A stretch of 43,765 bases of DNA from an uncultured Clostridium sp. (GTDB lineage Bacteria > Bacillota > Clostridia > TANB77 > CAG-508). The translations under genes and the position numbers were made by a program. The notes beneath the pieces are model-generated. The model ran no database searches, was not told the DNA's origin, and saw only the letters and a program-made list of their open reading frames with translations. Positions 1 to 36,164 of this stretch are shown here, piece by piece. Location of the stretch: the NCBI GenBank assembly GCA_948470605.1, contig CAOKPI010000013.1, positions 1 to 43,765 of the forward strand, written 5' to 3'. Numbering within the stretch: position 1 is the stretch's first letter; each line of letters begins with the position of its first letter.

Positions 1-1163
1 TACATAGTAATTTCTCTATCAAATTTCGACATTACACACTTTATTTTACATACCCGCCTTTCAATATTTTTAAAATCTAACATATATCTTGTTAATTTTC
101 TTTGCAATGGCATCTTTTTTGTTCCAAAACTACTATCTAAACTCGCTAAATTAAATACTATTTTTCTAATTAATGCTAAATTATTTATTGAATTTCCTAT
201 CCTATTTCTTGAATGGTCTTCATCTAATATTACATCTAATCTCCAGTGTAAACCACATTCTATATTCCAATGATCTCTTATTACTTCTTCTAATTTATCT
301 ATTTCTATTTTATAGTCTATTATATAATAATTGTCTGTTATACTTGTTTCATCTTCTATTGTCCTTTCAACTCTTACATATGCAATAGCTTTAACGGTTT
401 CCCATTTCTTTTTATTCTTTATTGTTTCTATATCATAGCTTAAGTAATAACTCCTTTTTTCTGTTCTTCCATGATTTTTTTTATCTGTTACTTCTTTCCA
501 TATTATATCTTTATGAGCCTTTAAGTTATTGATTTTATCAAAATATCTTCTTATATCTTTTTGTAATTCTTTTTGATTTTCTTTTGCTTTCAAAACATAA
601 TGACCACCTTGTTCGACTATCTTTTTCGTTATCTTTTCTTGTGTTCCTATTGCATCTATTGTTATATGAGCACCTGATATGTCTAATAAATCCAACAATT
701 CTGGTATTGCTGTTATTTCATTTGATTTTTCATCCACTTTCACTTGACCTATTGATATTCCTACATCTCCTAAAAATGCTGATACGATATATGGAGTGTT
801 TCCTCCATTAATTGTATCTGTAGCAGATTTCACTGCTTTTCCATCAATGCTTATATTTTTGTCTGTCTTCTTTTTTATTATTTCTTTTGTCCAGTCTACA
901 AATATTTCCATGAATTTTTTACTATCTATTGCTGCAAATACATCTGATAAGCAGTCATGTGATGGTGTCCCATTTTCTAATTTTAATAATTTTATGAAAT
1001 ATTCTTCTTTTATTTTCAGGAAATCAGCTATATTTGTGAAATCTGTTAAACCACATAATATTCCATATATTGTCATTATTAATATATCTATTAATTTATA
1101 TTTTTTTCCTCTTATATCTCTTGGATCTTCTAATATTTCAAATTTTTCAAATAATGTTTTCAT
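1..1163 (-). CDS. ISAs1-family transposase, 3' end cut by window edge (387 codons visible)
   Basis: Not in ORF track because it is open at the window edge. Reverse-strand translation MKTLFEKFEILEDPRDIRGKKYKLIDILIMTIYGILCG...NISIDGKAVKSATD...ITIDAIGTQEKITKKIVEQGGHYVLKAKENQ...DHWNIECGLHWRLDVILDEDHSRNRIGNSINNLALIRKI, typical of ISAs1-family DDE transposases. Confidence 0.93.
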   Translation of the reverse strand, partial: MKTLFEKFEILEDPRDIRGKKYKLIDILIMTIYGILCGLTDFTNIADFLKIKEEYFIKLLKLENGTPSHDCLSDVFAAIDSKKFMEIFVDWTKEIIKKKTDKNISIDGKAVKSATDTINGGNTPYIVSAFLGDVGISIGQVKVDEKSNEITAIPELLDLLDISGAHITIDAIGTQEKITKKIVEQGGHYVLKAKENQKELQKDIRRYFDKINNLKAHKDIIWKEVTDKKNHGRTEKRSYYLSYDIETIKNKKKWETVKAIAYVRVERTIEDETSITDNYYIIDYKIEIDKLEEVIRDHWNIECGLHWRLDVILDEDHSRNRIGNSINNLALIRKIVFNLASLDSSFGTKKMPLQRKLTRYMLDFKNIERRVCKIKCVMSKFDREITM

Positions 1164-1234
1164 TTGTTTTACCTCTTGAAAACATTATACTATATTTTCT
1201 CACTTTGTACATAAATTTTTAAGCGATTGCCATA
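1..1234 (-). mobile_element. ISAs1-family insertion sequence (one end visible)
   Basis: Transposase plus putative terminal sequence TATGGCAATCGCTTAAAAATTTATGTACAAAG (minus strand from ~1234); a near-identical end is found on the MITE at 31940..32050. Confidence 0.75.
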
Positions 1235-1341
1235 CAAATACATTTAATTTTTTAATCGAATGAATTTCTTAATCTACTTGCTTGCAACATGGAGCTTATT
1301 AAATCTAATTGCTATTTCTATTTTTATTTAATCAGTCATAG

Positions 1342-3429
1342 TTATTTTTTACATTTGGGACATCTTGGTGAACGAACTTTGTTATAAATAGCTTTTTTAT
1401 ATTCAAAACCACACTTATCGCATTTCCATGATACTACTTTTTTTGATGATGGTAAAATATTATCTGGATTTTGTTCTATATTTTTTTGGTAATCCCATTG
1501 TTTAACTATTGTAGGATATTTAGTTGCTAGGTCATTAAATCCTTTTAAAACAATTCTGTTAGTACAATATGGGCAATTACCTCCTTGTGCTCTAGTAGAT
1601 ATTTTTGTTTTCCATTCATGTCCATATTTACATTTCCACCATATCTCCTTATTAGTAAATTTTGCTACTTGATTTGGTTTCAAATTTCCATTTTTTTCGT
1701 AATTCCATTCTTTTGCTATTTCTGGACATAATGTTTCCAAATCATTATATCCTGGTAAAACTATTTTTCCATCACAAATGGAACATCCTGTATTTCTTCT
1801 AGAAGATATTGTTGCCTTCCACTCATGTCCACATTTTCCTTTCCACCATACCTTTTTTTGACTGCCTGGCAAAACTTGGCTTGGTCTTAAATTTCCATTT
1901 TTTTCGTAATTCCATTCTTTTGCTATTTTTGGATATTTTGTTTCTAAATCATTAAACCCAGACCATACTTTTTGATTCATACAATATGGGCATTTTCTTA
2001 TGTTATTATTATGTATTCTGTCATTTATTGAAACAAACCATTCATGTCCATATTTGCATTTCCACCATACTTTTTTTCCTGAACTTTTGCTTACATGACT
2101 AGGCTTTAAATTCCCATTTTTAGCATAATTCCATTCCATAGCTAATGTTGGATATGTTTCTTGTAATGATTTTTCTTTTTCATTATGACTCATTAAATTA
2201 TTTATTTCTTTTACATCTCTCTTAATATTAGAATTTATAGTTATATTAAGCAAATTTCCAATCCAATCTAGTGCTGGTAATACATGCATGCCACTTGCTT
2301 TTATATTATCCACATAAAAATCTTTTGATTTTCCATTAAGTTTTTTACAGCCTTTTTCTCTTATTCTAATTAGAGTTATCCCATGTTCATTACATATATC
2401 ATTTTTCTTATTATCTTTTTCTATATTTTTATGCCACCTTCTACCATCATATTCTATTCCAATTTTTTTACTTGGAATAAAAATATCTAATTCCATTGGC
2501 TTTAACCATTTTGGTTTGTAATTTTCAATTGCATCTTTAAATTTTTTCCTTATATAAAAGAATATTATTTTCTCTGGTAAAGATGTTTGCATTTCGGTAG
2601 CACATTTTTTACAGCCATTTCCACAATTTCTACTAGCAATAGTAGCAATCCACTCATGCCCTTTATTACATTTCCACCATACTTTTTTTCCAGAACTCTT
2701 TGTTACTTGATCAGGTCCTAAATCTCCATTTTTTTCATAATTCCATTCTTTTGCTAATGAAGAATTTTGACTTGCTAAATCATTAAATCCTTTTAGTACT
2801 CTATGTCCTGCACAATATGGACAATTATCTCCACTAACCCTATCTCTTAGTTTTGCTTCCCATTCATGCCCACATTTTCCAATCCACCATACTTTTCTCG
2901 TTATTGTAGACATCACTTGATTCGGTCTTAAATCAATATTTTTTTCATAATTCCATTCTTTTGCTATTTCCGGATATTTTGTTTCAAAATCATTATATCC
3001 TGGTAAAATTTTTTGATTAGAACAATAAGGACATCCATGTTTGCTTTTTGTTCTTGCATACAATTTAGTTTTCCATTCGCCATTACATTTACTACATAGC
3101 CACCATATTTCTTTAGCACTTCCTCTGGTTACATTTTCTGGTCTTATTGTTGCATTCTTTTTATAATTCCATTCTTTTATTAGTTCGGGATCAGTTGTTG
3201 TTAAGTCATTAAAACCTTGCAATACTTTCCTATTAGAACAATAAGGACATCCATTTCCTTTAAATCTATCACTGACTCTAGCAATCCATATATGTCCATA
3301 TTTACATTTCCACCATGCCTTTTTAGTACTTCCATATGATGTTTTTGTAGGATCTATATCACTATTTTTTTCATAATTCCATTCTTTCATCAAAAAATCA
3401 TTGTCTATTAAAAAATTTTTTTGATTCAA
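1342..3429 (-). CDS. Zinc-ribbon/treble-clef repeat protein (DUF4379-like) with central Vsr/PD-(D/E)XK-like nuclease domain
   Basis: Eight repeats of (K/M)EWNYxKN..(L/I)xP..V......WWKCxxGHEW.........CPYC; between repeats 4 and 5: MELDIFIPSKKIGIEYDGRRWHKN...NEHGITLIRIREKG. Confidence 0.8.
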   Translation of the reverse strand: MNQKNFLIDNDFLMKEWNYEKNSDIDPTKTSYGSTKKAWWKCKYGHIWIARVSDRFKGNGCPYCSNRKVLQGFNDLTTTDPELIKEWNYKKNATIRPENVTRGSAKEIWWLCSKCNGEWKTKLYARTKSKHGCPYCSNQKILPGYNDFETKYPEIAKEWNYEKNIDLRPNQVMSTITRKVWWIGKCGHEWEAKLRDRVSGDNCPYCAGHRVLKGFNDLASQNSSLAKEWNYEKNGDLGPDQVTKSSGKKVWWKCNKGHEWIATIASRNCGNGCKKCATEMQTSLPEKIIFFYIRKKFKDAIENYKPKWLKPMELDIFIPSKKIGIEYDGRRWHKNIEKDNKKNDICNEHGITLIRIREKGCKKLNGKSKDFYVDNIKASGMHVLPALDWIGNLLNITINSNIKRDVKEINNLMSHNEKEKSLQETYPTLAMEWNYAKNGNLKPSHVSKSSGKKVWWKCKYGHEWFVSINDRIHNNNIRKCPYCMNQKVWSGFNDLETKYPKIAKEWNYEKNGNLRPSQVLPGSQKKVWWKGKCGHEWKATISSRRNTGCSICDGKIVLPGYNDLETLCPEIAKEWNYEKNGNLKPNQVAKFTNKEIWWKCKYGHEWKTKISTRAQGGNCPYCTNRIVLKGFNDLATKYPTIVKQWDYQKNIEQNPDNILPSSKKVVSWKCDKCGFEYKKAIYNKVRSPRCPKCKK

Positions 3430-8891: not shown

Positions 8892-9824
8892 TTAAGCCTT
8901 TAAAAAATACTCTATACTATTAATATATTGATCCTGTGCATTTAAACATGTATCAATTAAATAACCTTTTTCTTTATTACTTTGATATTGATTTAATCCT
9001 CTATAATAGAATAATTTGTCTTTATCTAAAATAATAAATGGTATTATATTATTTTTTAAACATTCCTTAAACATTATAATTCTTCCGACTCTACCGTTCC
9101 CATCTTGAAATGGATGTATCTTCTCAAATTTCGAATGAAATTCAATTATTTCTTTTATAGTAACTTTTCCCAATGAATTATACCATTCTATTAGTTTGCT
9201 CATATCTCTTTCAACATTTTTTGGCTCAGTTGTTTTCATATTCCCAGCTTCATTGGGTAATTTTTTATATTTACCAACATTAAACCACTCTTTTCTACTA
9301 TCTGATGTCCCTTCTTTTAATACCTTATGAAATTCTTTTATCATATTTTCAGTTAGTTTTTTATCTGCTATGTCTAACATATAATCTACTAATTTGAAAT
9401 GATTAGCTGTTTCTAAAACATCATCTATATCAGTAATAGAATCTTTTTCAGCTATCAAAGTATTTGTTTCATAAATATATCTTGTTTGAGCTTCTGTAAG
9501 TTTACTTCCTTCTATATGGTTTGTATTGTACGCAAAAGTAACTTGAGTGTTATGATATAAATTACCTTTTAATTTCATATTTTTTTGTTCTCTTAATACC
9601 TCTAAAATGTTTATCTTCGAAATATCAAAATGATCTTCTTTTAACAAATCATCAATTGAAATATCAAATATTTCTGATAACTTTTTTAAGGATTCAATAT
9701 TAGGTTCTAAAGCTCCAGACTCATATTTAGAAACCGTAGCTGGTTTAACTCCTAATGCTTCAGCAATTTCTACTTGTGTCATCTTCTTGCTTTCTCTATA
9801 TAGTTTTATTTTTTCTCCTAACAT
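8892..9824 (-). CDS. XRE HTH + Fic domain protein
   Basis: N-terminal HTH (MTQVEIAEALGVKPATVSKYESG); Fic motif HPFQDGNGRVGR; putative inhibitory motif TNHIEG. Confidence 0.92.
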   Translation of the reverse strand: MLGEKIKLYRESKKMTQVEIAEALGVKPATVSKYESGALEPNIESLKKLSEIFDISIDDLLKEDHFDISKINILEVLREQKNMKLKGNLYHNTQVTFAYNTNHIEGSKLTEAQTRYIYETNTLIAEKDSITDIDDVLETANHFKLVDYMLDIADKKLTENMIKEFHKVLKEGTSDSRKEWFNVGKYKKLPNEAGNMKTTEPKNVERDMSKLIEWYNSLGKVTIKEIIEFHSKFEKIHPFQDGNGRVGRIIMFKECLKNNIIPFIILDKDKLFYYRGLNQYQSNKEKGYLIDTCLNAQDQYINSIEYFLKA

Positions 9825-9939: not shown

Positions 9940-12900
9940 TTATTTTCGTTCCAGTTTATACTCTTCACCATCTTCAGCAACTTTAAGTTCTGCTTCTTTA
10001 GTTTTTATTTCATCATCATATTCATTTTTCATTAGTCTGTAAATAACATTTCCTAAAGAATTCATAATTGCATCATAGAATTCTTTATTTTCAAACAACT
10101 TCTTATATGAAGTTGCACTTTCTTTATAACATTTTGCTGTTTTCTCACTAAATACTTTAGGAAATACTGATTTTGTAAACATATCTTCATTATTATTTTT
10201 AGCTAAATTTTTAATTGTTTTATCTTCCATAATAGTATTCATAAGATTTTCTACTATACGGTTATCTCCATCTGTAAATTGTCCAGAATATAATTCATTT
10301 ACTTTCTGAATTACTTCATCAAGTAATCTCTTTTCTGGTAGTACTACTATTTGTACTTTTGCTCCTTGTGGTTTTATCATTCCAGGAGTTTCTTCTGTTT
10401 TTCTTAAAGATACACTTCCATCAAAAGTTTGCTTTAAATTATAATATGTAAGTTTAACTGTTCCTTCCAAATCTATTACATCTATTTTATTCTTTGGTAA
10501 CAATTTTTCTACATATCTTAAATACATATAAATTTTGTGTAACTCTTCATCTCCCATATAGGCAATTTGTGTTATATATGAATAGAATCTATTAAAACTT
10601 CTTACTTCTCTTCTAAAGCTTTCTCTTTGTTCTATATCTAATTTATTGTACAAATCAACTGTTTCTTTGACACAACTCGTTAATTTTCCAAAATCATTTT
10701 CATTTTGTTTTCCATTTTTTAGATACATTTTACAAAATTTTTCTACATTATCATCATACCATAATTTATAGCTTCTTAATATATTTAACTTATCATATAT
10801 AACATTAGGATCTGTTTCTTTTTCTAAAACTGAAACATCATAAAATGGTTTAAAAGCTTCTTGCATATCTTCTGCCTTATTTACAAAATCAATTACTAAT
10901 GTATCATCTTTTCCTTTACACATTCTATTTAATCTTGATAATGTTTGTACAGCTTTTATTCCTGATAACTTTTTGTCAACAAACATTGTATGCAATAATG
11001 GTTCATCAAATCCTGTTTGATATTTTTCAGCAACTACTAATACATTAAATTCATCTCCATGAAAGTATTCTTTTGTCTGGGATTCTTTTATCTTCTTACC
11101 ATCTCTAGTTTTATTCATACCACTTTCTGTAAAGGCTTCTCCACCATCCTTAACTTCTCCTGAAAATGCTACTAAAACATCTAAATCATCGTAGCCCTTT
11201 TCTTGTATATATCTTTTCATTTCAAAGAAATATCTTACTGCATGTAATCTTGATGCTGTAACAAGCATTGCTTTTCCTTTACCACCAATTTTATTTTTAG
11301 TCACTTTTCTAAATTGTTCAACTATTATTTGTGTTTTTTGTGTTATATTTATCTCATGTAAACTTTCAAATTTTTTAATATATTTTGTAGCATAATTTTC
11401 TGGTACTTCTGGATTATCTGGTATTTTCTTTGCAATTTTATATATAGATTCATAAGTCATATAATTGGCTAATACATCTAATATAAATTCCTCTTCTATA
11501 GCTTGTCTCATACTATAAATATGAAATGGTCTAAAAGTTCCATCATCTTGTTTAGTTCCAAATAGTTCTAGCGTTTTTCCCTTAGGCGTTGCTGTAAATG
11601 CAAAGAATGATAGATTATCTTGCTTTCCATGTGTAGCTAATTCTTCTACTATTTTATCTTCATAATCTTTTTCATTTTCTTCTGCTATTGCTTCTAACTC
11701 TGCATATTTCTTTAATGCTTCATCTCTATCTGCTAATGCTATTTTCAATTTCTTTGCAGAGTTTCCTGTTTGGCTTGAATGTGCTTCATCAACTATTACA
11801 GCAAATTTCTTTCCTGCAGTATCTGATACATCTTTGTATATTACTGGAAACTTTTGAAGTGTTGTTATTATTATTCTTTTTCCATCATTTATAGCATCTT
11901 TTAAGTCTTTTGATGTTTTATCATCATCTATTTTTACAACTACACCTTGTTGGTGTTCAAATTGATAAATTGTATCTTGTAATTGTTTATCTAATACAGT
12001 TCTATCTGTTACAACTATAATAGAATTGAATATTGCATTATTATTTTTATCATGTAATCCTGAAAGTCTATGCGCAAGCCATGCTATAGAATTAGATTTT
12101 CCAGAACCTGCACTATGTTGAATTAAGTAGTTTTGTCCAACTCCACAATCTCTAACATTCCATATTAATTTTCTTACAACATCTAATTGATGATATCTTG
12201 GAAATATTATATTTTTCTTTTCAATCTTTTTTTCTTTACCATTTTTATGTTCTATTTCTTCTTTGACTTCTAGGTGTACAAATTTTTGAATTATTTCCAT
12301 TAAGGAATCTTTCATTAATACATTTTTCCATAAATAATCCGTAGTGTAGCCATTTGGATTAGTTGGATTTCCTGCTCCACCAACATTTCCTGCTCCATTT
12401 GATCCTTGATTAAATGGTAAATATCTTGTATTTGCCCCTGCCAATTTTGTAGTCATTTTTACATCATAATGGTCAACAGCGAAATACACTATTATTCTTG
12501 AATTAAATTTAAATATCAATTCTCTAGGATCTCTGTCATACATAAATTGTTTTTGTGCATTTTCTGAACTTTGTCCTGTTATTTGATTCTTTAATTCTAA
12601 AGCAACTAATGGAATACCATTTAATAGTAAAACAATATCAATTGAGTTTTCATTTTGAGTAGAATATTTTAACTGTCTTGTTTCGTTTAAAATGTTCATC
12701 TCATATAATCTTCTATCTTCTGAATTTAAATTTGTTTCTGGTTGAAAATATGCTAATTTAAACTTGTGGCCACGATCTGTTATTCCATTTCTAACAACAT
12801 CTACAATTCCTCTTTGAGACACTTCTTCATTAAATCTTTTTATGAGTCTATTTTCATAGTCATCTGGAAAAGCTTTTTTATATCTTTCCCATTCATTATT

Positions 12901-13050
12901 TTGAGAATTCTCTATAAATGTAAATAAATCTTTTCTATTTAATGCACATTCTCTATCAAAATCTTGTGGATTTCCTTTTACATAGCCTCCATCTTCCGAT
13001 AATAAATAACTTTCTATATCTTGTTCAAATCTTCTTTCATTTTCTTCCAT
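9940..13050 (-). CDS. hsdR: Type I restriction endonuclease subunit R
   Basis: IDIVLLLNGIPLVALELKN nuclease motif, QHSAGSGKSNSIAWLA Walker A, VDEAHSSQ, helicase motifs; start placed at MEENERRFEQDIESYL. Confidence 0.95.
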   Translation of the reverse strand: MEENERRFEQDIESYLLSEDGGYVKGNPQDFDRECALNRKDLFTFIENSQNNEWERYKKAFPDDYENRLIKRFNEEVSQRGIVDVVRNGITDRGHKFKLAYFQPETNLNSEDRRLYEMNILNETRQLKYSTQNENSIDIVLLLNGIPLVALELKNQITGQSSENAQKQFMYDRDPRELIFKFNSRIIVYFAVDHYDVKMTTKLAGANTRYLPFNQGSNGAGNVGGAGNPTNPNGYTTDYLWKNVLMKDSLMEIIQKFVHLEVKEEIEHKNGKEKKIEKKNIIFPRYHQLDVVRKLIWNVRDCGVGQNYLIQHSAGSGKSNSIAWLAHRLSGLHDKNNNAIFNSIIVVTDRTVLDKQLQDTIYQFEHQQGVVVKIDDDKTSKDLKDAINDGKRIIITTLQKFPVIYKDVSDTAGKKFAVIVDEAHSSQTGNSAKKLKIALADRDEALKKYAELEAIAEENEKDYEDKIVEELATHGKQDNLSFFAFTATPKGKTLELFGTKQDDGTFRPFHIYSMRQAIEEEFILDVLANYMTYESIYKIAKKIPDNPEVPENYATKYIKKFESLHEINITQKTQIIVEQFRKVTKNKIGGKGKAMLVTASRLHAVRYFFEMKRYIQEKGYDDLDVLVAFSGEVKDGGEAFTESGMNKTRDGKKIKESQTKEYFHGDEFNVLVVAEKYQTGFDEPLLHTMFVDKKLSGIKAVQTLSRLNRMCKGKDDTLVIDFVNKAEDMQEAFKPFYDVSVLEKETDPNVIYDKLNILRSYKLWYDDNVEKFCKMYLKNGKQNENDFGKLTSCVKETVDLYNKLDIEQRESFRREVRSFNRFYSYITQIAYMGDEELHKIYMYLRYVEKLLPKNKIDVIDLEGTVKLTYYNLKQTFDGSVSLRKTEETPGMIKPQGAKVQIVVLPEKRLLDEVIQKVNELYSGQFTDGDNRIVENLMNTIMEDKTIKNLAKNNNEDMFTKSVFPKVFSEKTAKCYKESATSYKKLFENKEFYDAIMNSLGNVIYRLMKNEYDDEIKTKEAELKVAEDGEEYKLERK

Positions 13051-14959
13051 AATTATTGCTCCTTTGAATTGTTTTCTTTCCATATCCATTTGGTATCAGA
13101 TTATTTTTTCTCATATATGAAAGACAACTTTTTACTTTTTTTATATTTATTTTTGTTTTCCTTTTACTCCAGGCATAAAATTCTTCTATTATTTGTTCGT
13201 CTGTCGGATTTATTCCATCAATTAAAAAATCATTCCAACAGTAAAACAATGTAGCAATTATTTCACTTTGCTGTGTATCTTTATTCTTAAATAATTTAAT
13301 TATTCTAGTTATTTCATTATCATTTTCTTCGAAATGCTCTTGATATCTTTTAATTCCTTCTTTATAATTTTTATCCAATGTATAAATATCTCTCATATTG
13401 TCTTTTGATATTTTTACCCACTTTTCTTTTTCAAAAGTATCATATACATCATTCATCATTTCTTTACTATATGGTCCTGCAACATATTTTTCATAATCTG
13501 GTTCTTTTTCATATTTAATAATTTTTAATATTACACTCTGTATTTTATTTAACTTTATCTTACACATAGAATAATTATTTGGAAGTTGTTCTATTATTCT
13601 TAATGACAATTCTGCCATTTCTGTATTATTATAATTTGTTTTTACCTCTTTTTTTCCTGTTACATATTCATATATAAGTGATTTTTTATAGTTTTCTAAT
13701 TCTTCTATTATTTTTTCTTTATTATTAATTAATTTGTCTATTTCTTCGCATTTCTCTGATATATATTTTTCAATTTGATTTTGTTCTTTTAGTGGTGGCA
13801 AAGCTATTAATATATTACCAATTTCTGCACCTGATATATGAACAACTTTCAATTTAGACTTTCCATAACTTTTTTGTGTTTGTCCATAATGACTATTTAA
13901 AGCATAACTTAAAAATACTGGATTTTCAGAATGCTTTACAATTATAATATCTCCTCCAGCTAAACAATTTTCATTTCCTAAATATACTATATTTTTTCCT
14001 ATTTCTTCTACTAATTCTCCTGTACCAGCAAATAATAAATCACCATAAGTGAAATATTGATTTGAATTTATCTTTTCTTTATTAGTTCTAGTTTCACATT
14101 CATAAAACTTATAGTTATATTTTGAATATATTTCACCATATCTCACACAAGGTGTATCTCCATCAGTTACAATGTCTTCTTTAGTAATTCCATTACCTTT
14201 GCCAATAGAATTTACAATATATTTTAATTTTATAAGTTTCCAATGCCTTGGAATCATTCCAATCGCTTCAATACCACTATCTTTCATTTTGATATTTTCA
14301 TTTAACCCTTTTGTAACAACTCTAGTTATAATTGATTGCTCATATAACTTGTAATCTTCTATTGTTTGCTTCGTTTTTCTTATTGCATTATCTATTTCAT
14401 CTACTTTTTTATTTAAATGATTGGCTATTCTTTCTTGTTCATCCTTAGTAGGTATAGGCATTATTATATTATTTAATTTTTCCATTGGAATTCTCATTCT
14501 TATTGTATTTAATTTTCCATTATCCGATTCTTTAGCAACAATACCATTGCCTAAACCCCATAAGCTTTTTTGAAATGCATTTGATTGAAATATATAATTA
14601 TAATAATCTATATTATAATTATTATTTCTAACAAATAATGTATAGTATACTGGACTAACACATCCAAAATAATTAGATTTTCCAACCGATCCAACCACTA
14701 CATTCATACTATTTAATACAATATCATTTGGATAAGCTAACTTATAATCTTCAAATTTTTCTTTTGCCTTATTTCCCCCTCCTGTTTTTTCTGAATATGG
14801 AAAAACTCCTCTATCTATTGACAAAGACAAAATGTCTTTACTTTTTATTGGATCATTTTTTTCTTTTCTCTCTTCTAACACATGTTTTAATCGTTTTATT
14901 GTCCAATCTTCTGGTATATTTCCAATCCATTCTATTCCAGAATCTTTCATTTTTCTCAT
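13037..14959 (-). CDS. hsdS: Type I restriction specificity subunit S with ~190-aa C-terminal extension
   Basis: Two TRD modules starting MKDSGIEWIGNIPEDW and MKDSGIEAIGMIPRHW; conserved ..PLKEQNQIEKYISEKCEEIDKLI; then extension from MAELSLRIIEQLPNN. Confidence 0.93.
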   Translation of the reverse strand: MRKMKDSGIEWIGNIPEDWTIKRLKHVLEERKEKNDPIKSKDILSLSIDRGVFPYSEKTGGGNKAKEKFEDYKLAYPNDIVLNSMNVVVGSVGKSNYFGCVSPVYYTLFVRNNNYNIDYYNYIFQSNAFQKSLWGLGNGIVAKESDNGKLNTIRMRIPMEKLNNIIMPIPTKDEQERIANHLNKKVDEIDNAIRKTKQTIEDYKLYEQSIITRVVTKGLNENIKMKDSGIEAIGMIPRHWKLIKLKYIVNSIGKGNGITKEDIVTDGDTPCVRYGEIYSKYNYKFYECETRTNKEKINSNQYFTYGDLLFAGTGELVEEIGKNIVYLGNENCLAGGDIIIVKHSENPVFLSYALNSHYGQTQKSYGKSKLKVVHISGAEIGNILIALPPLKEQNQIEKYISEKCEEIDKLINNKEKIIEELENYKKSLIYEYVTGKKEVKTNYNNTEMAELSLRIIEQLPNNYSMCKIKLNKIQSVILKIIKYEKEPDYEKYVAGPYSKEMMNDVYDTFEKEKWVKISKDNMRDIYTLDKNYKEGIKRYQEHFEENDNEITRIIKLFKNKDTQQSEIIATLFYCWNDFLIDGINPTDEQIIEEFYAWSKRKTKINIKKVKSCLSYMRKNNLIPNGYGKKTIQRSNNYGRK

Positions 14960-14960
14960 G

Positions 14961-16706
14961 TTACTTGTCCTCCTTAAATAATTTTTCAAGAGAACTCATA
15001 ATATCTTTCTCATTTTTTCTAATTCTTTCTTCTATAACATCAGAATCTTCTGGCTCAACATATTTATAAAAGTATCTTGTAAAAGGAATTTCATAACCTA
15101 CAACAGTTTTCCTTTCATCAATCCAAGCTTTTTCATTATAAGGTAAAACTTCTCTTTTAAAATACTGTTTTATATCCTCTAATAAAGGAATATTCTCATA
15201 ATCTCTTTTACGAGAATCTGCTTTTTTAATTTTCTTTTTATCTTTTATTATGTTTCCATCCTCATCCTCTAACGGAGATTCAATTGTAATTCTATTAAAT
15301 CCAAAATCGAAATTATTAAAAATCTTACTTTCTACTGATTTCCCATTTTCACTATATTCTGTATTCTGAAAATCATCATAAGCCTTTAATATTAAGTTTT
15401 TACATTCTTCACTGATATCTTTTCTCTTATTACCTATGTTTTTTCTTCTATTTTCATAACAATTTGAAGCATCTATTAATTGTACTTTTCCTTCTCTCAT
15501 AACATTCTTATGTTTGTTTATTAACCAAATATATGTAGATATTCCTGTGTTATAGAATAAATCTGTTGGCAATTGAATTATAGCTTCTAGCCAATCATTT
15601 TCGATAATATATTTTCTTATTTCAGATTCTCCTGAACCTGCTTGTCCACTAAACAATGGTGAACCATTTTGAATAATTGCCATTCTTCCATTATCTTTCA
15701 ATTTTGCTATACCATTTAAAGTAAATAACATTTGTCCATCGCTAATCTTAGGTGTACCAACTGGAAATCTTCCTTTATCTCCTTTTGATACTTCATTTTC
15801 TATCGCTTTCTTTTGTTTCTTCCAATCGATTCCAAATGGTGGGTTTGAAATAATATAATCAAATTCATAACCTTTAAATTTATCATCATCTAAAGTATCT
15901 CCTTGTTTGAAATTCTCAGCATCTCCACCTTTTATTAGCATATCTGCTTTTGCTATAGCATAAGTTTCAGGATTTAATTCTTGCCCATAACAATCAACAA
16001 TAGCATCTTTATTTAGTTGTTTCAGCCTATCTGTCATGCATGCTAACATTTGAGAAGTTCCCATTGCCATATCATAAATTGTTTTCACTTTGTTTTCATT
16101 TATTAAAACGTCTCTTTCTTCAGCAATCAATAAATCTGTCATTAAATAGATAATATCTCTAGCTGTAAAATGTGCTCCTGCTTCTTCATCATAACTTTCT
16201 GAAAACTTTCTAACTAGTTCTTCAAAAATATATCCCATATCTTCTGTTTTTACTTCATCTAATCCCATATATGCTTTTTTACTATTAAATTCTTCTAAAA
16301 CAACATATAGTAATCTATTTTCAGCCATTGTTTTTACTTCATTTTCAAATTTAAAATTATTAAGTATATCAATTACATTGTCTGAAAATCCATTCAAATA
16401 ATTTTTAAAATTGCTCTCTATATTATCTGGATCTGCAAGTAATTTTTCAAAATCATATTTACTAGTATTATAAAAATTATATCCAGATGCTTCTATTAAG
16501 AAATGTTCCTTAACTTCAAATTTTTTATATTCTTCATATGCTTCTAATACTTTTTCTTTAGTTGGTTGCAATATATCATCAAATCTTTTTAATACTGTCA
16601 TTGGCAATATTACTTTTCCATATTCATGTGGTTTATAGACTCCTACTAATTTTGTTGCTACTTCCCATATTAAATTTGCTTTATCATTTATTGTATTTTT
16701 CATCAT
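14961..16706 (-). CDS. hsdM: Type I restriction modification subunit M (N6-adenine MTase)
   Basis: GAHFTARDIIYLMTDL; YDMAMGTSQML; ISNPPFGIDW motif IV. Confidence 0.96.
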   Translation of the reverse strand: MMKNTINDKANLIWEVATKLVGVYKPHEYGKVILPMTVLKRFDDILQPTKEKVLEAYEEYKKFEVKEHFLIEASGYNFYNTSKYDFEKLLADPDNIESNFKNYLNGFSDNVIDILNNFKFENEVKTMAENRLLYVVLEEFNSKKAYMGLDEVKTEDMGYIFEELVRKFSESYDEEAGAHFTARDIIYLMTDLLIAEERDVLINENKVKTIYDMAMGTSQMLACMTDRLKQLNKDAIVDCYGQELNPETYAIAKADMLIKGGDAENFKQGDTLDDDKFKGYEFDYIISNPPFGIDWKKQKKAIENEVSKGDKGRFPVGTPKISDGQMLFTLNGIAKLKDNGRMAIIQNGSPLFSGQAGSGESEIRKYIIENDWLEAIIQLPTDLFYNTGISTYIWLINKHKNVMREGKVQLIDASNCYENRRKNIGNKRKDISEECKNLILKAYDDFQNTEYSENGKSVESKIFNNFDFGFNRITIESPLEDEDGNIIKDKKKIKKADSRKRDYENIPLLEDIKQYFKREVLPYNEKAWIDERKTVVGYEIPFTRYFYKYVEPEDSDVIEERIRKNEKDIMSSLEKLFKEDK

Positions 16707-22248: not shown

Positions 22249-22346
22249 ATTGAAACAAAAATATTTCAGAATTATTTGTAATTAATTATTTTAAAATTTT
22301 ATTGGCTCTAAGTTTCCTACCAAATATGAAAGGAGGTGATGCACGT

Positions 22347-23534
22347 GTGGTAGGAAACATCGAAAAAAGAGGAGAGAATTCATACAGGCTAAGAGTATCT
22401 GGAGGCTACACTGGAGAAGGCAAAAGAATCATTTACAAAAAGACAGTCCAAGCCAAAAACAAAACAGAAGCCGAAAAAGAACTAGCACTCTTTATATCAG
22501 AAATAGAAACAGGACAAGCCCTATCAGCAAAGAAAATGCGTTTTAGAGATTATGCTGACTTTTGGATTAACAATTATGCCATTCCAAATTTATCTCCAAA
22601 AACGTACGAACGATATAAAAGTATGCTAAAAGCTAGAATTCTCCCTTATCTCGGCAATATGTATCTAGACAAAATTCAACCAATGCAATTAATGTACCTA
22701 TATCAAGAGCTAACAGAATCAACCTACACTAGAAAAAACATAACCCATAAACTATCTTCTAAAACAGTATTAGAACACCATAGAGTATTACATTCTATGT
22801 TACAGCAAGCAGTTTATTGGCAAATGATACCTTATAATCCAGCATCTAGAGTACGACCACCTAAGGCTAAAAAACCTAATATTAACTTTTATGATGATGC
22901 TCAAACGATTGCATTAATTAAGGCATTGGAAGGCGAAGAATTGAAATTTCGAGTTATCATTCTTCTAACAATTTTTACTGGATTAAGGCGTGGAGAAGTG
23001 TTAGGACTAGAATGGCAAGACATTGATTTCAAAAATTCTTCTCTAGCAGTTAGGCAAGCAAGCCAATATGTTTCTGCTATTGGGATTTATACCAAAGATC
23101 CGAAAACAGAAACATCAAACAGGATGATTAGTATTCCTGAATCAATTATTAAATTACTAAAAGAGTACAAAAGAAAACAACTAGAAGCTAGACTTCGTTT
23201 GGGAGACAAATGGATTGAAACAAATCGTTTATTTGTTCAATGGAATGGTAGTCCAATGCACCCAGACACAATTACCAAATGGTTTAGGCAGTTCCTAGAA
23301 GATAAAAACTTGCCACATATTACATTTCATGGCTTACGCCATACACATGCAACTTTGTTAATTTCACAAGGTTTGGATGTTCGAACGGTTAGTAATCGAT
23401 TAGGACATGCACAAACATCTACAACTTTAAATATCTATGCCCATGCTTTTGCGAAAATGGACAGAGAGGCATCAGATAAACTTGATAATCTTCTTTATCG
23501 AGAAGATACAAAAAAATATTTTAAAGCCAATTAG
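22347..23534 (+). CDS. Tyrosine integrase of element B
   Basis: TGLRRGEVLGLEWQDI, HGLRHTHATLLISQG, LGHAQTSTTLNIYAHA; GTG start preceded by AAAGGAGGTGAT. Confidence 0.96.
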   Translation: MVGNIEKRGENSYRLRVSGGYTGEGKRIIYKKTVQAKNKTEAEKELALFISEIETGQALSAKKMRFRDYADFWINNYAIPNLSPKTYERYKSMLKARILPYLGNMYLDKIQPMQLMYLYQELTESTYTRKNITHKLSSKTVLEHHRVLHSMLQQAVYWQMIPYNPASRVRPPKAKKPNINFYDDAQTIALIKALEGEELKFRVIILLTIFTGLRRGEVLGLEWQDIDFKNSSLAVRQASQYVSAIGIYTKDPKTETSNRMISIPESIIKLLKEYKRKQLEARLRLGDKWIETNRLFVQWNGSPMHPDTITKWFRQFLEDKNLPHITFHGLRHTHATLLISQGLDVRTVSNRLGHAQTSTTLNIYAHAFAKMDREASDKLDNLLYREDTKKYFKAN

Positions 23535-30448: not shown

Positions 30449-31576
30449 ATGGCAGTACAAGAAATCATAAAAAATAAAAAGTACAAAATAGACATACCAA
30501 TAGGTTACAACGGAAACAAAAGAATACGACATATAGAAACCTTTTACGGTGGTAAAAAAGAAGCGGTATTACGTGAAAGCGAACTAAAATTGAGCATAAA
30601 AACCAATACTTATATAAATAAAAGCAAAATAACGATGAAAGAATTATTAGAAGAATGGCTAGAATATTCAAAAAACGTATGGTCACCCAAAACATATACT
30701 GCTAATAAGCATTGGTGCGATAATATAATTAAATCTATCGGACATATTCACATACAAGATTTGAATGTTAAACTTTTAGAAGATTTTTATAATGAGTTAA
30801 GAAATAATACAAACTATTCTGATAAAACGATTCAACATCATTATACTATCATTTCTACTGCGTTAAATAAAGCTGTAATTTGGGGATATATATTAAATAA
30901 TCCTAATGTTAGAATAGAGAAACCCAAAGTAAGAAAAAAGGAAATAGAATGTTATTCTCCAGAAGAAGTCAATCAATTAATAAAAGCATTACAAGACGAA
31001 CCTCTAAAATATCAAGCTATTATAATGCTAGCTTTAGATAGTGGAGCAAGAAGGGGAGAAATAACAGGTTTAACATGGCAAGATATTGATACAAAAAAAT
31101 CTACAATGCTTATCAATAAAAGTACACAATATACCAAAGAATTAGGCATATTTGAAAAAGATACTAAAACACCTACAAGCAATAGAACAATTTACTTATC
31201 TAAAACTACAATAAATATTTTAAAGAAATATCAAAAAGAACAATTAGAAAAGAAAATGAAATTAGGCAATAAATGGAAAAATAGTAAAAGAATATTTACA
31301 ACAGAATATGGAGCAGATATGCACCCAGATACACCATCACAAATTTTAGATAAGATTATAAAAAGACATCAATTAAAAAGAATTAGATTTCATGGACTAA
31401 GACATACTTGTGTTTCCTTGCAAATATCAAGTGGAATACAAGCACAAATAATAAGCAAAAGAGCAGGTCATTCAAATGTTACAGTAACACATAATACATA
31501 TAGTCATTTCTTTGATAATGAATTTAAAGAAGTTGCTAATACAATGGATAATTTTTTACAAATACAATCGATATAA
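30449..31576 (+). CDS. Tyrosine integrase of element A
   Basis: LDSGARRGEITGLTWQDI, HGLRHTCVSLQISSG, RAGHSNVTVTHNTYSHF. Confidence 0.96.
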   Translation: MAVQEIIKNKKYKIDIPIGYNGNKRIRHIETFYGGKKEAVLRESELKLSIKTNTYINKSKITMKELLEEWLEYSKNVWSPKTYTANKHWCDNIIKSIGHIHIQDLNVKLLEDFYNELRNNTNYSDKTIQHHYTIISTALNKAVIWGYILNNPNVRIEKPKVRKKEIECYSPEEVNQLIKALQDEPLKYQAIIMLALDSGARRGEITGLTWQDIDTKKSTMLINKSTQYTKELGIFEKDTKTPTSNRTIYLSKTTINILKKYQKEQLEKKMKLGNKWKNSKRIFTTEYGADMHPDTPSQILDKIIKRHQLKRIRFHGLRHTCVSLQISSGIQAQIISKRAGHSNVTVTHNTYSHFFDNEFKEVANTMDNFLQIQSI

Positions 31577-31727: not shown

Positions 31728-31803
31728 TGGTTGCGGAGGGTAGACTCGAACTACCGACCTTTGGGTTATGAGCCCAACGAGCTGCCAACTGCTCCACTCC
31801 GCG
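31728..31803 (-). tRNA. Initiator tRNA-Met (CAT)
   Basis: CGCGGAGTGGAGCAGTTGGCAGCTCGTTGGGCTCATAACCCAAAGGTCGGTAGTTCGAGTCTACCCTCCGCAACCA; C1-A72 mismatch and GGG/CCC anticodon stem mark an initiator tRNA. Confidence 0.97.
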
Positions 31804-31939
31804 ATATTTGAACAATATTTATTATACAACCTCGAAGCACATTTTGTCAATAGATTTTAAAAATTTAGCAAAAAAACAGGGGCAAAAAGCATTATCTCTT
31901 ATCTATTATATACCAAATCAGGCAAAATATAACCACAAA

Positions 31940-32050
31940 TATAGCAATCGCTAAAAAAATTTCTACACATTGAAAATACTCAATCTTATTTTTAATAAAA
32001 ATAAAAAACCTGATTTTTCTAAGACAAAAAATTTTTAAGCAATTGCCATA
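31940..32050. mobile_element. 111-bp MITE with ISAs1-like terminal inverted repeats
   Basis: tatagcaatcgctaaaaaaattt ... aaaaaatttttaagcaattgccata; flanked by 9-bp direct repeat aaccacaaa (31931..31939 / 32051..32059). Confidence 0.82.
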
Positions 32051-32222
32051 AACCACAAAATCAGCAAATATATTACATTCTTAATTAAGCAAAACAAAAA
32101 AATCAGAAAAAATATTACAAAAATATTACATTTTATAAAAATACGAAAAAAATATATACAAACGCGAAGTTTTGTTATATAAATAAGAAGTATTAATTAC
32201 GAAACAAAAAAAGGAGGATAAC

Positions 32223-32432
32223 ATGATTACTTATGAGCCATTCAGAGCCTATGTTGCCACAAAAAACATAAAGAAAAAAGACATCATGAAAAACACAGGA
32301 ATCTCGCCAGCAACAATGAGTAAACTAAAACATGACAAACCCGTATCAGTAGAAATAATTGGACGTTTATGTTCTTTCTTAAACTGTCCGATAACAGAAA
32401 TCATAAAATATAAAGAGGAGAGAATATCATGA
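32223..32432 (+). CDS. XRE/Cro-type regulator (R-M controller-like)
   Basis: MITYEPFRAYVATKNIKKKDIMKNTGISPATMSKLKHDKPVSVEIIGRLCSFLNCPITEIIKY; ATGA overlap with MTase. Confidence 0.85.
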   Translation: MITYEPFRAYVATKNIKKKDIMKNTGISPATMSKLKHDKPVSVEIIGRLCSFLNCPITEIIKYKEERIS

Positions 32433-34852
32433 ATAGGAAGACATATATTAGTTTATTTAGTAGTGCAGGAGTTGGATGTTACGGATTCAAAATGGAAAAC
32501 TTTGAATGTATAGCAACCAATGAACTATTAGAAAATAGATTAGAAATCCAAAAAAACAACAACAAATGCAAATATGAATCAGGATATATATCAGGAGATA
32601 TAACAAAAGACGAAACCAAAGAAAAAATATTCCATGAAATCAAACGATGGAAAACAAAAGAAAAAGTAAAAGATATCGACTTAGTAGTTGCCACACCTCC
32701 CTGTCAAGGAATGTCAACTGCCAACTACAAAAAAAATAACGAGCAAAAAAGAAATTCATTAGTAGTAGAAGCCATAAAACTAATAGAATCCATAAAACCC
32801 AAAATTTTTGTGATGGAAAACGTCAGAGCCTTTATGAATACAATCTGTACAGACATTGATGGACAAGACAAAAAAATCTCTGAAAGTATCTATCATAACT
32901 TAGGAAACGACTACAATATCCACCACAAAATAATAAACTTTAAAGACTATGGCGTTCCTTCCAGTAGACCCAGAACAATTGTAATTGGAACTAGAAAAGA
33001 CTTATTAAACATTTCCCCCTTAAATTTATTTCCTACAAAACAAAAAGAAATTACACTTAGACAAGCAATTGGTAATTTAAAAAGTCTAAGATATGGAGAA
33101 ATTGATGAAAATGATATTTACCACTTTGCCAGAAAATATCCAGAATATATGGAAGAATGGATTAATGATTTAAAAGAAGGAGAAACAGCCTTTAACAATG
33201 AAGAAGGCAAAAAACCATATAAAATCATAAAAGGAGAACGTGTAACCTTAAAATCAGCACATTTAGGAAATAAATTCAGAAGATTATTTTGGGACAAATG
33301 TTGTGCCTGTGTAGCGACAAGAAATGACTTATTAGCCAGTCAAGACACCATACATCCATCTGATAATCGAGTACTAAGCATTAGAGAATTAATGAAAGTA
33401 ATGACCATTCCTGATACTTTTAAATGGGTACCAGAAAATATAAACGAAATTGAAGAAAAAGAACTGTTTCTAAAAAAATACGAACTAAATATCAGAAGAT
33501 GCATCGGTGAGGCTGTTCCTACCAATATAATGAACGCCATCGCCAAAAATATAGACATTATGCTAGCCTTCGAATATTTTGTTCAATCCTACAAGAAGAA
33601 AGATTTACAACAACATATACAAAATAAAAATTCTTACCAAAATAATTTTTACATACAATCCTTTTTATACGAAGAAATGCTAAATGATAAGAAAAAAACA
33701 GGTTCTTTTTATACGCCACAAAGTGTAGTATTTAACTCTATAAAATATTATGAAACCAATGTAAAAGAAATAAAAATATTAGAGCCGTCCGTTGGACTAG
33801 GAGCTTTTTTGCCACAAGTTATTTCTATTTTAGATAAATGCGAGAAAATAGAACTAGATGTAGTGGATACAGACGAAAATGCCTTAAAAGAATTAAAAAC
33901 CATACTTCCCCTATTAAACTTTGGCGATAGAGTAACAATAAATTACATTTGTGACGATTTCCTAAAACATGAATTTAATAAAACCTACGATTTAGTAGTA
34001 GCAAATCCACCTTATTGTAAGCCAGAAAAAAAAGAATTGCAAGAATACAGAAAAAAATTTGAAGAAGCAAATGTTGCTAACATATATGTGTTTTTTATGA
34101 AAAAGCTAAAAGACCTATCTAAAGAAATCATTATTATCATTCCAAAAACCTTTTTAATGGCAGCAGAATACTCTAATTTAAGAAAACTATATGAAAAAAC
34201 ACCAATTGTTGCAATTCATGATTTCGGTGTAAAATACTTTAAAAATGTCTTTGTTGAAATCATTTCTATTCATTTCAAAGAAGGCTACAAAAAAGATACC
34301 ATCATAGATGACAAAGTCAATGGAATCTGTTTGCAACAAAAACAATTTTATATCATTCATGATAAATGCTGGCTATTATATAGAAACAAATGGTTTGATA
34401 ACTACATAAAAAAAATAAAACTAAATGTTTTTGACTTTTTCAGAGATAGACAAATAACAAATAAATTTCTAAAAGAAACTGGTAAATATAGAATTTTAAA
34501 ATCCAAAAACATATTGGATAATGGTGAAATTGTAAACATTGAAGGTTATGATAAATATATCAATGATATAAAAACCTTTCATGCTAGCAAATATCTAAAT
34601 ACAAATTCTATTATTATGCCAAATTTTACATATAATACACGAGCTACCTTTTTACCAAAAAACACCATTCCCAATGGTTCGATTGCCATTTTATTACCCA
34701 AAGATAATGAAATTTTAGAAAATATTGATTTAAGCTTGTACTCTACACAAGATTTTAGGGATTATTATGGCATTGTAAAAAACAAATCTAAATTCACAAT
34801 CAATATAGACTCAAGTTCAATTTATTATATAGGAGTAAAAAATAATGGATAA
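32429..34852 (+). CDS. Bifunctional DNA methyltransferase: m5C domain fused to m6A domain
   Basis: m5C: ISLFSSAGVGCYGF, VVATPPCQGMS, VMENVRAF; m6A: TGSFYTPQSVV, ILEPSVGLGAFLPQ, LVVANPPYCKP. Confidence 0.93.
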   Translation: MNRKTYISLFSSAGVGCYGFKMENFECIATNELLENRLEIQKNNNKCKYESGYISGDITKDETKEKIFHEIKRWKTKEKVKDIDLVVATPPCQGMSTANYKKNNEQKRNSLVVEAIKLIESIKPKIFVMENVRAFMNTICTDIDGQDKKISESIYHNLGNDYNIHHKIINFKDYGVPSSRPRTIVIGTRKDLLNISPLNLFPTKQKEITLRQAIGNLKSLRYGEIDENDIYHFARKYPEYMEEWINDLKEGETAFNNEEGKKPYKIIKGERVTLKSAHLGNKFRRLFWDKCCACVATRNDLLASQDTIHPSDNRVLSIRELMKVMTIPDTFKWVPENINEIEEKELFLKKYELNIRRCIGEAVPTNIMNAIAKNIDIMLAFEYFVQSYKKKDLQQHIQNKNSYQNNFYIQSFLYEEMLNDKKKTGSFYTPQSVVFNSIKYYETNVKEIKILEPSVGLGAFLPQVISILDKCEKIELDVVDTDENALKELKTILPLLNFGDRVTINYICDDFLKHEFNKTYDLVVANPPYCKPEKKELQEYRKKFEEANVANIYVFFMKKLKDLSKEIIIIIPKTFLMAAEYSNLRKLYEKTPIVAIHDFGVKYFKNVFVEIISIHFKEGYKKDTIIDDKVNGICLQQKQFYIIHDKCWLLYRNKWFDNYIKKIKLNVFDFFRDRQITNKFLKETGKYRILKSKNILDNGEIVNIEGYDKYINDIKTFHASKYLNTNSIIMPNFTYNTRATFLPKNTIPNGSIAILLPKDNEILENIDLSLYSTQDFRDYYGIVKNKSKFTINIDSSSIYYIGVKNNG

Positions 34853-36164
34853 AATAAATAAAAAAATAGTAAAAGAAATGGTTGCTTATTTTGATTCCTT
34901 ATCACTTTCAAAAGAAAAGGGAAGATACTTGTCTGATAAATCCTATGGATATGATACCATATTCTTCATGGCAAAATTTATTCAAAAAAATAAAATTGGA
35001 AATAAATTTAATAAAAAAGAACAAAAACAAAGAGCAATCGAATATACAGAAGATATTTTTAATTTAAGACCAGGAACAAAGGGAGCTGTGAATTACTTTT
35101 TGGAAAGCCTAAATCTACTTGAATTTGCTAATATCATAAAAAAAATAGACCGTGATAATTATACCATATTAAATAGTAAGATATTAAATTATATTTGTGA
35201 ATATCCGGAAAATGCCTATATATTCATCTATTTGGTAACCTATTGTACCATGAAAAACGATAACATCTTACACTTATTTAAAAAGTTGTATGACCCCCAA
35301 AACACAAAGGAAACAAACCGAAATATAGTAAATGAAATCTATAATGAATTCTATAAAAAAAGTATCAGTATTGGAAAAAAAGATTCTAATTGGTCAAAAC
35401 AACTTCTACAATATACCAATAACACATTAGGATTCATCAATCATGGTATCTATTTCGCTAGAACGTTAAATATAAACAAAAAAAAGAAAATCACAATTTA
35501 TACTATCTCTTTAAATGTTGAAGGAACTAGAACACCAATGGATTTAAAAAAGAAAAATGACTATTTAGTTAAATTTTGTAGAGACTATGTACTTTATATG
35601 CTTCATGATTATACCTTCTCTGAAATTTCCTATGACAAAAATAAAATTTACCCAGAAGAAACAGTCGCAAGTGAATTAGCACAACTAAAATTGGAAATTA
35701 TTGATAGTAAAGTTGCACCAAATATAAACAATGATTTCGAGAAAAAGCAATTTGTAGAAGATAAGATGAAAACGAGAAATCAGGCAGTACAACGAGAATT
35801 TAAAAAAGGACTATTAGAAAATAATGAACATGTTTGCCCTATCTGTGGTTTTGCTTTTTCTAAATTTCTAATAGCTAGTCACATCAAACCTTATGCTTTA
35901 TGTGATAATACCTACGATGCTATCAATTCTTACAATGGCTTATTATTATGTCCTAATCATGACAAATTATTTGAAAGTGCAAAATATATGACAATAGATA
36001 GTTATACAGGAGAAATACGTTTAAATGAAGAAGCAAAAAATTCAAAAGATTATGGTATGTTAGAGGGACAAAAAATAGATATTCGATTAATTCAATGTGA
36101 AAGAATACATTATTTAAGATGGCATAATCAGCGTTTTAAAGAAAACAATGAAAAATCATTATAA
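34845..36164 (+). CDS. HNH-type restriction endonuclease
   Basis: C-terminal CPICGFAFSKFLIASHIKPYALCDNTYDAINSYNGLLLCPNHDKLFE; overlaps MTase stop by 8 bp. Confidence 0.88.
   Translation: MDKINKKIVKEMVAYFDSLSLSKEKGRYLSDKSYGYDTIFFMAKFIQKNKIGNKFNKKEQKQRAIEYTEDIFNLRPGTKGAVNYFLESLNLLEFANIIKKIDRDNYTILNSKILNYICEYPENAYIFIYLVTYCTMKNDNILHLFKKLYDPQNTKETNRNIVNEIYNEFYKKSISIGKKDSNWSKQLLQYTNNTLGFINHGIYFARTLNINKKKKITIYTISLNVEGTRTPMDLKKKNDYLVKFCRDYVLYMLHDYTFSEISYDKNKIYPEETVASELAQLKLEIIDSKVAPNINNDFEKKQFVEDKMKTRNQAVQREFKKGLLENNEHVCPICGFAFSKFLIASHIKPYALCDNTYDAINSYNGLLLCPNHDKLFESAKYMTIDSYTGEIRLNEEAKNSKDYGMLEGQKIDIRLIQCERIHYLRWHNQRFKENNEKSL

What the first reader, a model, noticed from the sequence alone, without database searches (positions are those of the whole stretch)
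31931..32059. 111-bp MITE with ISAs1-like ends and a 9-bp target duplication beside the tRNA
Element 31940..32050 has ends tatagcaatcgct-aaaaaaattt and tatggcaattgcttaaaaatttt (right end, reverse complement). The IS end at ~1234 reads tatggcaatcgcttaaaaattt. The flanks are the perfect 9-bp direct repeat aaccacaaa. ISAs1-family elements are known to make 8-10 bp duplications, so this is probably a non-autonomous element moved by the transposase seen at the left edge.
Basis: partly seen in the sequence, partly recalled or inferred. Interest (0 to 1): 0.65.

Follow-up and report, generated by a model that had tools for sequence, protein, structure and literature searches.

The report
MITE that inserts at promoter -35 boxes
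The 111-bp repeat is a real, once-mobile short transposon of the ISAs1 family, and comparison of about a hundred end junctions of its kind shows that these elements insert at one exact position in gene promoters, copying the first half of the -35 box so that the promoter stays intact.

Summary
In detail: 31940-32050 is a 111-bp element with imperfect terminal inverted repeats and a perfect 9-bp duplication. It is a MITE. Relatives occur in other genomes of the genus (three 100% identical copies in one genome), the uninterrupted site exists in two relatives, and its ends match those of an ISAs1-family insertion sequence (IS), both the fragment at the window's left edge and a complete 1252-bp copy in a relative.

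The unexpected result is where these elements land. Of 103 unique flanks of IS/MITE ends, 48 have TTG at flank positions 7-9, the last three bases of the 9-bp duplication. In 39 of those 48 a TATAAT-like box follows exactly 17 bp after the -35 hexamer; TTGs elsewhere do so in 3-5%. The target is therefore a sigma-A-type promoter, cut inside its -35 box, and the duplication rebuilds the -35 beside the element. Empty sites show the promoters were there first. The window copy fits the same register (GTTATA-17-TATAAT facing tRNA-Met). Other ISAs1-family elements show a weaker peak 18 bp upstream of the -35. Promoter targeting is published for Mutator-superfamily transposases; I found no report for ISAs1. 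How the promoter is recognised remains open.

The parts
31940..32050 (.). 111-bp MITE (non-autonomous ISAs1-family element)
   Evidence: 86-90% identical to copies in G107, G003 and G235; no ORF of 80 aa or more inside; homologous to the IS only in its terminal 19-22 bp.
31940..31961 (+). Left terminal inverted repeat, tatagcaatcgctaaaaaaatt
32029..32050 (-). Right terminal inverted repeat (read on the minus strand: tatggcaattgcttaaaaattt)
   Evidence: 22/22 identical to one end of the G088 IS.
31931..31939 (.). Left copy of the 9-bp target duplication aaccacaaa
   Evidence: single copy in empty sites L330 and L335.
32051..32059 (.). Right copy of the 9-bp target duplication aaccacaaa
31928..31933 (-). 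Weak -35-like hexamer GTTATA in the standard register (flank positions 7-12, first three bases inside the TSD)
   Evidence: same register as 48 other junctions.
31905..31910 (-). -10 box TATAAT, exactly 17 bp from the hexamer above, pointing to tRNA-Met
   Evidence: also present in the empty sites.
31845..31850 (-). -35 TTGACA of the nearer tRNA-Met promoter
   Evidence: TTGACA-18-TATAAT.
31821..31826 (-). -10 TATAAT of the nearer tRNA-Met promoter
31728..31803 (-). tRNA-Met (CAT)
   Evidence: ARAGORN.
1..1234 (-). ISAs1-family IS, cut off by the contig edge; its terminal inverted repeat is 1213-1234
3..1163 (-). ISAs1-family DDE transposase (387 aa visible)
   Evidence: NF033564 328 bits; PF13808 and PF01609; AlphaFold model pLDDT 87, best solved match Tn5 transposase.
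1235..1243 (.). Flank of the IS, CAAATACAT: starts with CAA, as expected for the side away from the promoter
   Evidence: the other flank is off the contig.

Best explanation
The feature is a MITE mobilised in trans by a cut-and-paste ISAs1-family DDE transposase. SHOWN: the transposase family, matching ends, 9-bp duplications, multiple and partly identical copies, and empty sites. SHOWN STATISTICALLY: this IS/MITE group inserts at one exact position of sigma-A-type promoters. The staggered cut leaves a 9-bp duplication that ends with the first three bases (TTG) of the -35 hexamer. The promoter-side flank therefore again reads TTGnnn-N17-TATAAT directly beside the element, while the far flank keeps only the TTG (read as CAA). 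The core promoter survives and only the DNA upstream of about -41 is replaced by the element's end. INFERRED: this lets the element enter gene-dense DNA with little damage to the host. INFERRED: the asymmetric target is recognised as a promoter, through RNA polymerase holoenzyme or by direct reading of promoter DNA, rather than through the symmetric target preference usual for a transposase dimer. The window copy is an older, diverged member with a weak -35 but an exact -10 position, 17 bp away, facing tRNA-Met.
For: MITE and IS. Empty sites for the window copy (G111, G024) and for three other copies, with the promoter already present in the uninterrupted sequence. Register: 48 of 103 unique flanks have TTG at 7-9, and 39 of those have TATAAT (at least 5/6) exactly at 30-35, against 3.2% of TTGs (561/17281) and 5.0% of strong -35 hexamers (194/3909). 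Across all 103 flanks the count of TATAAT-like boxes is 47 at position 30 and mostly 0-7, at most 13, elsewhere. In a set chosen only by the element's inner sequence (75 ends), 32 fit the full register, 7 have the -10 without the TTG and 25 are far sides starting CAA; shifted registers give at most 1. Genes: 35 of 43 promoter-side flanks have a ribosome-binding site and ORF start within 300 nt, against 6 of 27 far-side flanks. Asymmetry: only 2 of 48 promoter-side flanks also have CAA at positions 1-3. Wider family: 127 flanks show 17 TTGACA-like hexamers at position 19 against 0-3 at any other position.
Against: No promoter or transposition was measured. Genomes are mostly draft metagenome assemblies that break in multi-copy IS, so many insertions show only one flank. 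Eight of 75 ends fit neither side of the pattern, and some MITEs lack a clean TSD. The window copy itself has a poor -35 (GTTATA, 3/6). The 18-bp register in the wider family covers only about a third of insertions, is rare among the plasmid copies examined, and includes TTGACA hits without an obvious -10.
Confidence: 0.86

Rival explanations
1. Ordinary ISAs1-type MITE with no special targeting: insertions are random in AT-rich intergenic DNA and only those beside promoters survive selection.
For: Insertions upstream of a promoter are probably tolerated, and such promoters are common in intergenic DNA; ISAs1-family copies on plasmids mostly show no promoter register.
Against: Selection cannot give single-base precision: TATAAT-like boxes pile up at exactly one position (47 against mostly 0-7, at most 13, elsewhere), and shifted registers give at most 1 of 75. 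Three identical, hence recent, G235 copies lie beside promoter-like sequences; the C2, C42 and C100 copies each have a flank with TTG at 7-9 and a -10 at 30-35.
Confidence: 0.04
2. The transposase reads only a short sequence around TTG (a -35 half-site) and has no relation to promoters as such.
For: TTG is the most constant part; a few wider-family insertions have TTGACA at position 19 with no -10, one apparently inside an ATP synthase beta gene (gene identity from reading the translation by eye).
Against: 81% of the TTG targets have a consensus -10 exactly 17 bp on, against 3-5% of TTG or TTGACA-like sites generally. Seven ends have the -10 without the TTG, including the window copy.
Confidence: 0.2
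3. Targeting goes through RNA polymerase holoenzyme: the transposase touches promoter-bound polymerase, as proposed for TnGBS transposases and shown for yeast Ty3 with its polymerase III factors.
For: Asymmetric target covering both -35 and -10; published analogy and proposal in PMC3942029.
Against: In the window-type group the cut falls inside the -35 hexamer that sigma region 4 would cover; no interaction was tested; the structure search gave transposase folds only and points to no polymerase-binding domain.
Confidence: 0.5
4. The repeat is a chance inverted repeat with a chance 9-bp direct repeat.
For: The DNA is AT-rich, where short repeats are frequent.
Against: Homologous full-length copies, empty sites and the end-pattern control.
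Confidence: 0.01

Closest known systems
ISAs1-family insertion sequences (NCBIfam NF033564; Pfam PF13808 + PF01609)
   Same: Transposase family, GGCAATCGC core of the terminal repeats, 1.2-1.35 kb autonomous element, 8-10 bp duplications.
   Different: Window group ends start TATGGC instead of CAGGGC, and insertion is fixed to the -35 box of promoters; the wider family shows a weaker register 18 bp upstream. I found no report of promoter targeting for this family.
TnGBS / ISLre2 / ISKra4 elements (prokaryotic Mutator-like transposases, PMC3942029)
   Same: Insertion at a fixed distance upstream of sigma-A promoters; either orientation when the two ends are alike.
   Different: Unrelated transposase family; their distance is 15-17 bp upstream of the -35. 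Here the duplication overlaps the -35 itself (window group), or the distance is 18 bp (other ISAs1 elements).
Tn5 / IS50 transposase
   Same: Closest solved fold (Foldseek E 5.6e-9, TM 0.58); also makes 9-bp duplications (general knowledge).
   Different: No detectable sequence relation to solved chains; Tn5 has a loose, symmetric target preference (general knowledge).
MITEs derived from bacterial IS
   Same: Short, non-coding, shares only ends with the autonomous element, multi-copy, with TSDs.
   Different: Placement in exact promoter register; I found no earlier description of this MITE family.

Membership tests
MITE (non-autonomous DNA transposon) | Short element with terminal inverted repeats and no transposase | tested here: met
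   111 bp, repeats of about 22 bp, no ORF.
MITE (non-autonomous DNA transposon) | Target duplication and an empty site in a relative | tested here: met
   9-bp aaccacaaa; uninterrupted orthologous site in G111 and G024.
MITE (non-autonomous DNA transposon) | Multiple copies sharing the interior | tested here: met
   Copies in G000 (2), G003, G107 and G235 (3, 100% identical).
MITE (non-autonomous DNA transposon) | Ends match a co-resident autonomous element | tested here: met
   21/22 identical to the window IS end; 22/22 and 20/22 to the G088 IS ends.
ISAs1 family | ISAs1-family transposase with DDE residues | tested here: met
   NF033564 328 bits, cut-off 70; D107, D170, E302. Applies to the presumed partner IS.
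ISAs1 family | Related terminal repeats and an 8-10 bp duplication | tested here: met
   GGCAATCGC core shared with other family members; 9-bp TSDs.
ISAs1 family | Transposition of the MITE by this transposase | not testable with these tools
   Needs a mating-out or plasmid assay.
Promoter-targeting prokaryotic Mutator-like elements (TnGBS, ISLre2, ISKra4) | Mutator-superfamily transposase | tested here: not met
   The transposase is ISAs1 family; no Mutator match in Pfam or NCBIfam.
Promoter-targeting prokaryotic Mutator-like elements (TnGBS, ISLre2, ISKra4) | Insertion 15-17 bp upstream of the -35 | tested here: not met
   Window group: -35 begins 6 bp from the element end; other ISAs1 elements: 18 bp. 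It works like them but is not one of them.

The most novel reading that the evidence does not exclude
ISAs1-family transposases as a whole are promoter-guided, probably through RNA polymerase holoenzyme: the wider family integrates 18 bp upstream of the -35, and the TATGGC-ended branch has shifted by 12 bp so that its 9-bp duplication rebuilds the -35 box itself. This would be a second, independent origin of promoter targeting outside the Mutator superfamily, and one that leaves the host promoter intact.
Probability: 0.4. Interest if true: 0.78.

Novelty: new variant of a known kind. Interest (0 to 1): 0.62.

Why it matters
Transposons that aim at promoters without breaking them are known for a few Mutator-type elements and, in yeast, for Ty3. 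An unrelated IS family doing so, with single-base precision and with the duplication restoring the -35 box, suggests that promoter targeting evolved more than once. Two registers in one family give a natural comparison for finding the residues that set the position. Practically, such elements mark promoters: each insertion points to a -35/-10 pair, which helps map promoters in uncultured bacteria. A site-selective small transposase could also become a tool for promoter tagging.

Tried and rejected
Chance repeat: rejected by copies, controls and empty sites. Random insertion plus selection: rejected by the single-base register. Inverted-repeat hits in coding DNA or with no repeated interior (for example L096, L099, L101, L107) were set aside as false ends. 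Searching Bacteroidota genomes, whose promoters differ, to separate polymerase guidance from TTGACA reading was not possible: the centre must be a genome handle. Plasmid copies of named ISAs1-family elements (ISAs1, ISOan1, ISPa60 and others) gave little: ends of several could not be fixed and few show the register. No solved relative by sequence. Literature searches for ISAs1 with promoter targets or TTGACA found nothing on target choice; the library holds open-licence papers only, so an earlier report cannot be excluded. Labelled tree of the wider family: the window branch sits with L234 and L204, which have promoters at about position 19, so the shift to position 7 looks like a change within that branch; only one register-7 transposase is long enough to use, so this is weak.

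Full report
OBSERVATION. The element is present as described. It spans 31940-32050 (111 bp), is flanked by the perfect 9-bp repeat aaccacaaa at 31931-31939 and 32051-32059, and has ends tatagcaatcgct... and tatggcaattgctt.... The end of the IS at the left edge of the window, read from the tip inward, is tatggcaatcgcttaaaaattt. In the 1.93-Mb genome of the window the 19-base end pattern occurs without mismatch only at the two MITE ends, the IS end and one further place, C10:11497-11515, which is the intact end of a second, degraded MITE copy; the reversed control pattern gives none.

COPIES AND EMPTY SITES. The 111 bp find a full-length copy in G107 (114 bp, 87%) and a shorter one in G003 (82 bp). 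Their flanks carry 9-bp duplications TGGTATTTG and GAATATTTG. G235 has three 114-bp copies that are 100% identical to each other, two of them with exact 9-bp duplications. The window copy is 86-90% identical to the copies outside its genome, so it is an older insertion. Joined flanks searched in the genus show the uninterrupted site of the window copy in G111 and G024 with one aaccacaaa, and uninterrupted sites for the L129, L062 and L139 copies.

THE PARTNER IS. The left-edge ORF is an ISAs1-family transposase (NF033564, 328 bits; PF13808 and PF01609) with D107, D170 and E302 invariant or nearly so among relatives. The AlphaFold model (mean pLDDT 87) has the Tn5 transposase as its best solved match. 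The copy is cut by the contig edge. The first 55 or so bases of contig C12 are identical to those of C13, so the assembly forks inside the IS. A complete but frameshifted copy in G088 (1252 bp) has the same ends on both sides and a 9-bp duplication, CAAATTTAA. MITE and IS share only the terminal 19-22 bp.

WHERE THEY INSERT. Reading outward from 103 unique ends with the core sequence, 48 flanks have TTG at positions 7-9, the last three bases of the duplication; other positions have 0-6. In 39 of these 48 a hexamer matching TATAAT in at least five positions stands at 30-35, exactly 17 bp after the -35 hexamer. Among all TTGs in the fetched DNA 3.2% do (561/17281); among TTG hexamers matching TTGACA in at least five positions, 5.0% (194/3909, an upper estimate because it includes the targets). 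Taking the 75 ends whose interior recurs elsewhere, a choice blind to the flanks, gives 32 with TTG and -10 in register, 7 with the -10 only, 25 that start with CAA (the far side of the duplication), 3 with TTG only and 8 with neither; registers shifted by 1-20 give 0 or 1. Both ends of the IS can face the promoter, as can both MITE ends. Promoter-side flanks lead into a ribosome-binding site and ORF in 35 of 43 cases, far-side flanks in 6 of 27. The empty sites show that the promoters existed before the insertion.

THE WINDOW COPY. Read from its left end toward tRNA-Met, the flank is TTTGTG GTTATA TTTTGCCTGATTTGGTA TATAAT: weak at -35, perfect at -10, spacing 17, in the same register. The tRNA has a second, perfect promoter nearer to it, TTGACA-18-TATAAT (tRNA). 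The IS at the left edge is flanked by CAAATACAT, the far-side signature.

WIDER FAMILY. For other ISAs1-family elements from the genus and from many phyla, 127 flanks of 64 insertions show 17 TTGACA-like hexamers at position 19 and 0-3 at any other position; TTG alone is at position 19 in 23 flanks and at most 5 elsewhere. Hosts include Methylobacter, a cyanobacterium and a Kiritimatiellales bacterium with TTGACA-17-TAGAAT. A minority lack a visible -10. Eighteen plasmid copies show the register only once or twice. I treat the 18-bp register as a real but partial property needing more data.

MECHANISM. Shown: DDE transposase family, duplications, copies, empty sites, statistical register. Inferred: the staggered cut falls 6 bp upstream of the -35 on one strand and inside the -35 (TTG|nnn) on the other; gap filling duplicates nnnnnnTTG, so the promoter beside the element is complete again. 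The target is asymmetric (only 2 of 48 also have CAA at the other end of the duplication), unlike the symmetric preferences of a transposase dimer. This suggests recognition of a promoter, either as DNA or through polymerase. The data do not decide between these.

COMPARISON. Promoter targeting is published for TnGBS, ISLre2 and ISKra4 elements, Mutator-superfamily transposases that insert 15-17 bp upstream of sigma-A promoters, where contact with the polymerase initiation complex was proposed by analogy with Ty3 (PMC3942029). That paper does not mention ISAs1. The present elements work similarly but have an unrelated transposase and a different register. Searches for ISAs1 together with target or promoter terms gave no such report, within an open-licence library.

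VERDICT. The promoter register is the notable result: a new variant of promoter-targeted insertion in the ISAs1 family, well supported statistically, untested experimentally.

Noticed in passing
Wider ISAs1 family: L204, L208, L215, L221, L222, L224, L228, L235, L240, L253, L317 and others: -35-like hexamers stand exactly 18 bp from the IS end in about a third of insertions, a second promoter register within the same transposase family.
   Followed up: partly
G030, G265 and G268 (loci L164-L193): Other MITE families with the same 16-bp ends but different interiors (about 185-250 bp with long internal hairpins, and 62-115 bp) also sit in promoter register; some in G265 have promoters on both sides and no clean duplication.
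   Followed up: partly
L056 (G000:C9, about 46111-46129): A degraded end (TATAGTAATCACTTAAAAA) lies beside TTGACA-17-TATTAT, directly upstream of tRNA-Gly and tRNA-Cys: probably a remnant of the same element kind.
   Followed up: partly
window 1-55 and G000:C12:1-55: Both contigs begin with the same 55 or so bases of the transposase gene and then diverge: an assembly fork, so the genome probably holds at least one further, partial IS copy.
   Followed up: partly
window 32429-34852: One 807-aa ORF joins a C5-cytosine methylase to an N6-adenine methylase domain, followed by an HNH endonuclease ORF (34845-36164): an unusual fused restriction-modification set.
   Followed up: no
window 1342-3429: 695-aa protein with eight treble-clef DUF4379 zinc-finger repeats, next to the IS.
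   Followed up: no
window 8892-9824: ORF with an N-terminal HTH regulator-like stretch followed by what reads like a Fic domain, beside a type I restriction-modification operon (9940-16706).
   Followed up: no
window 22302-23534 and 30449-31576: Two tyrosine recombinases, the second ending about 150 bp from tRNA-Met: the window probably holds tandem integrated elements using that tRNA.
   Followed up: no
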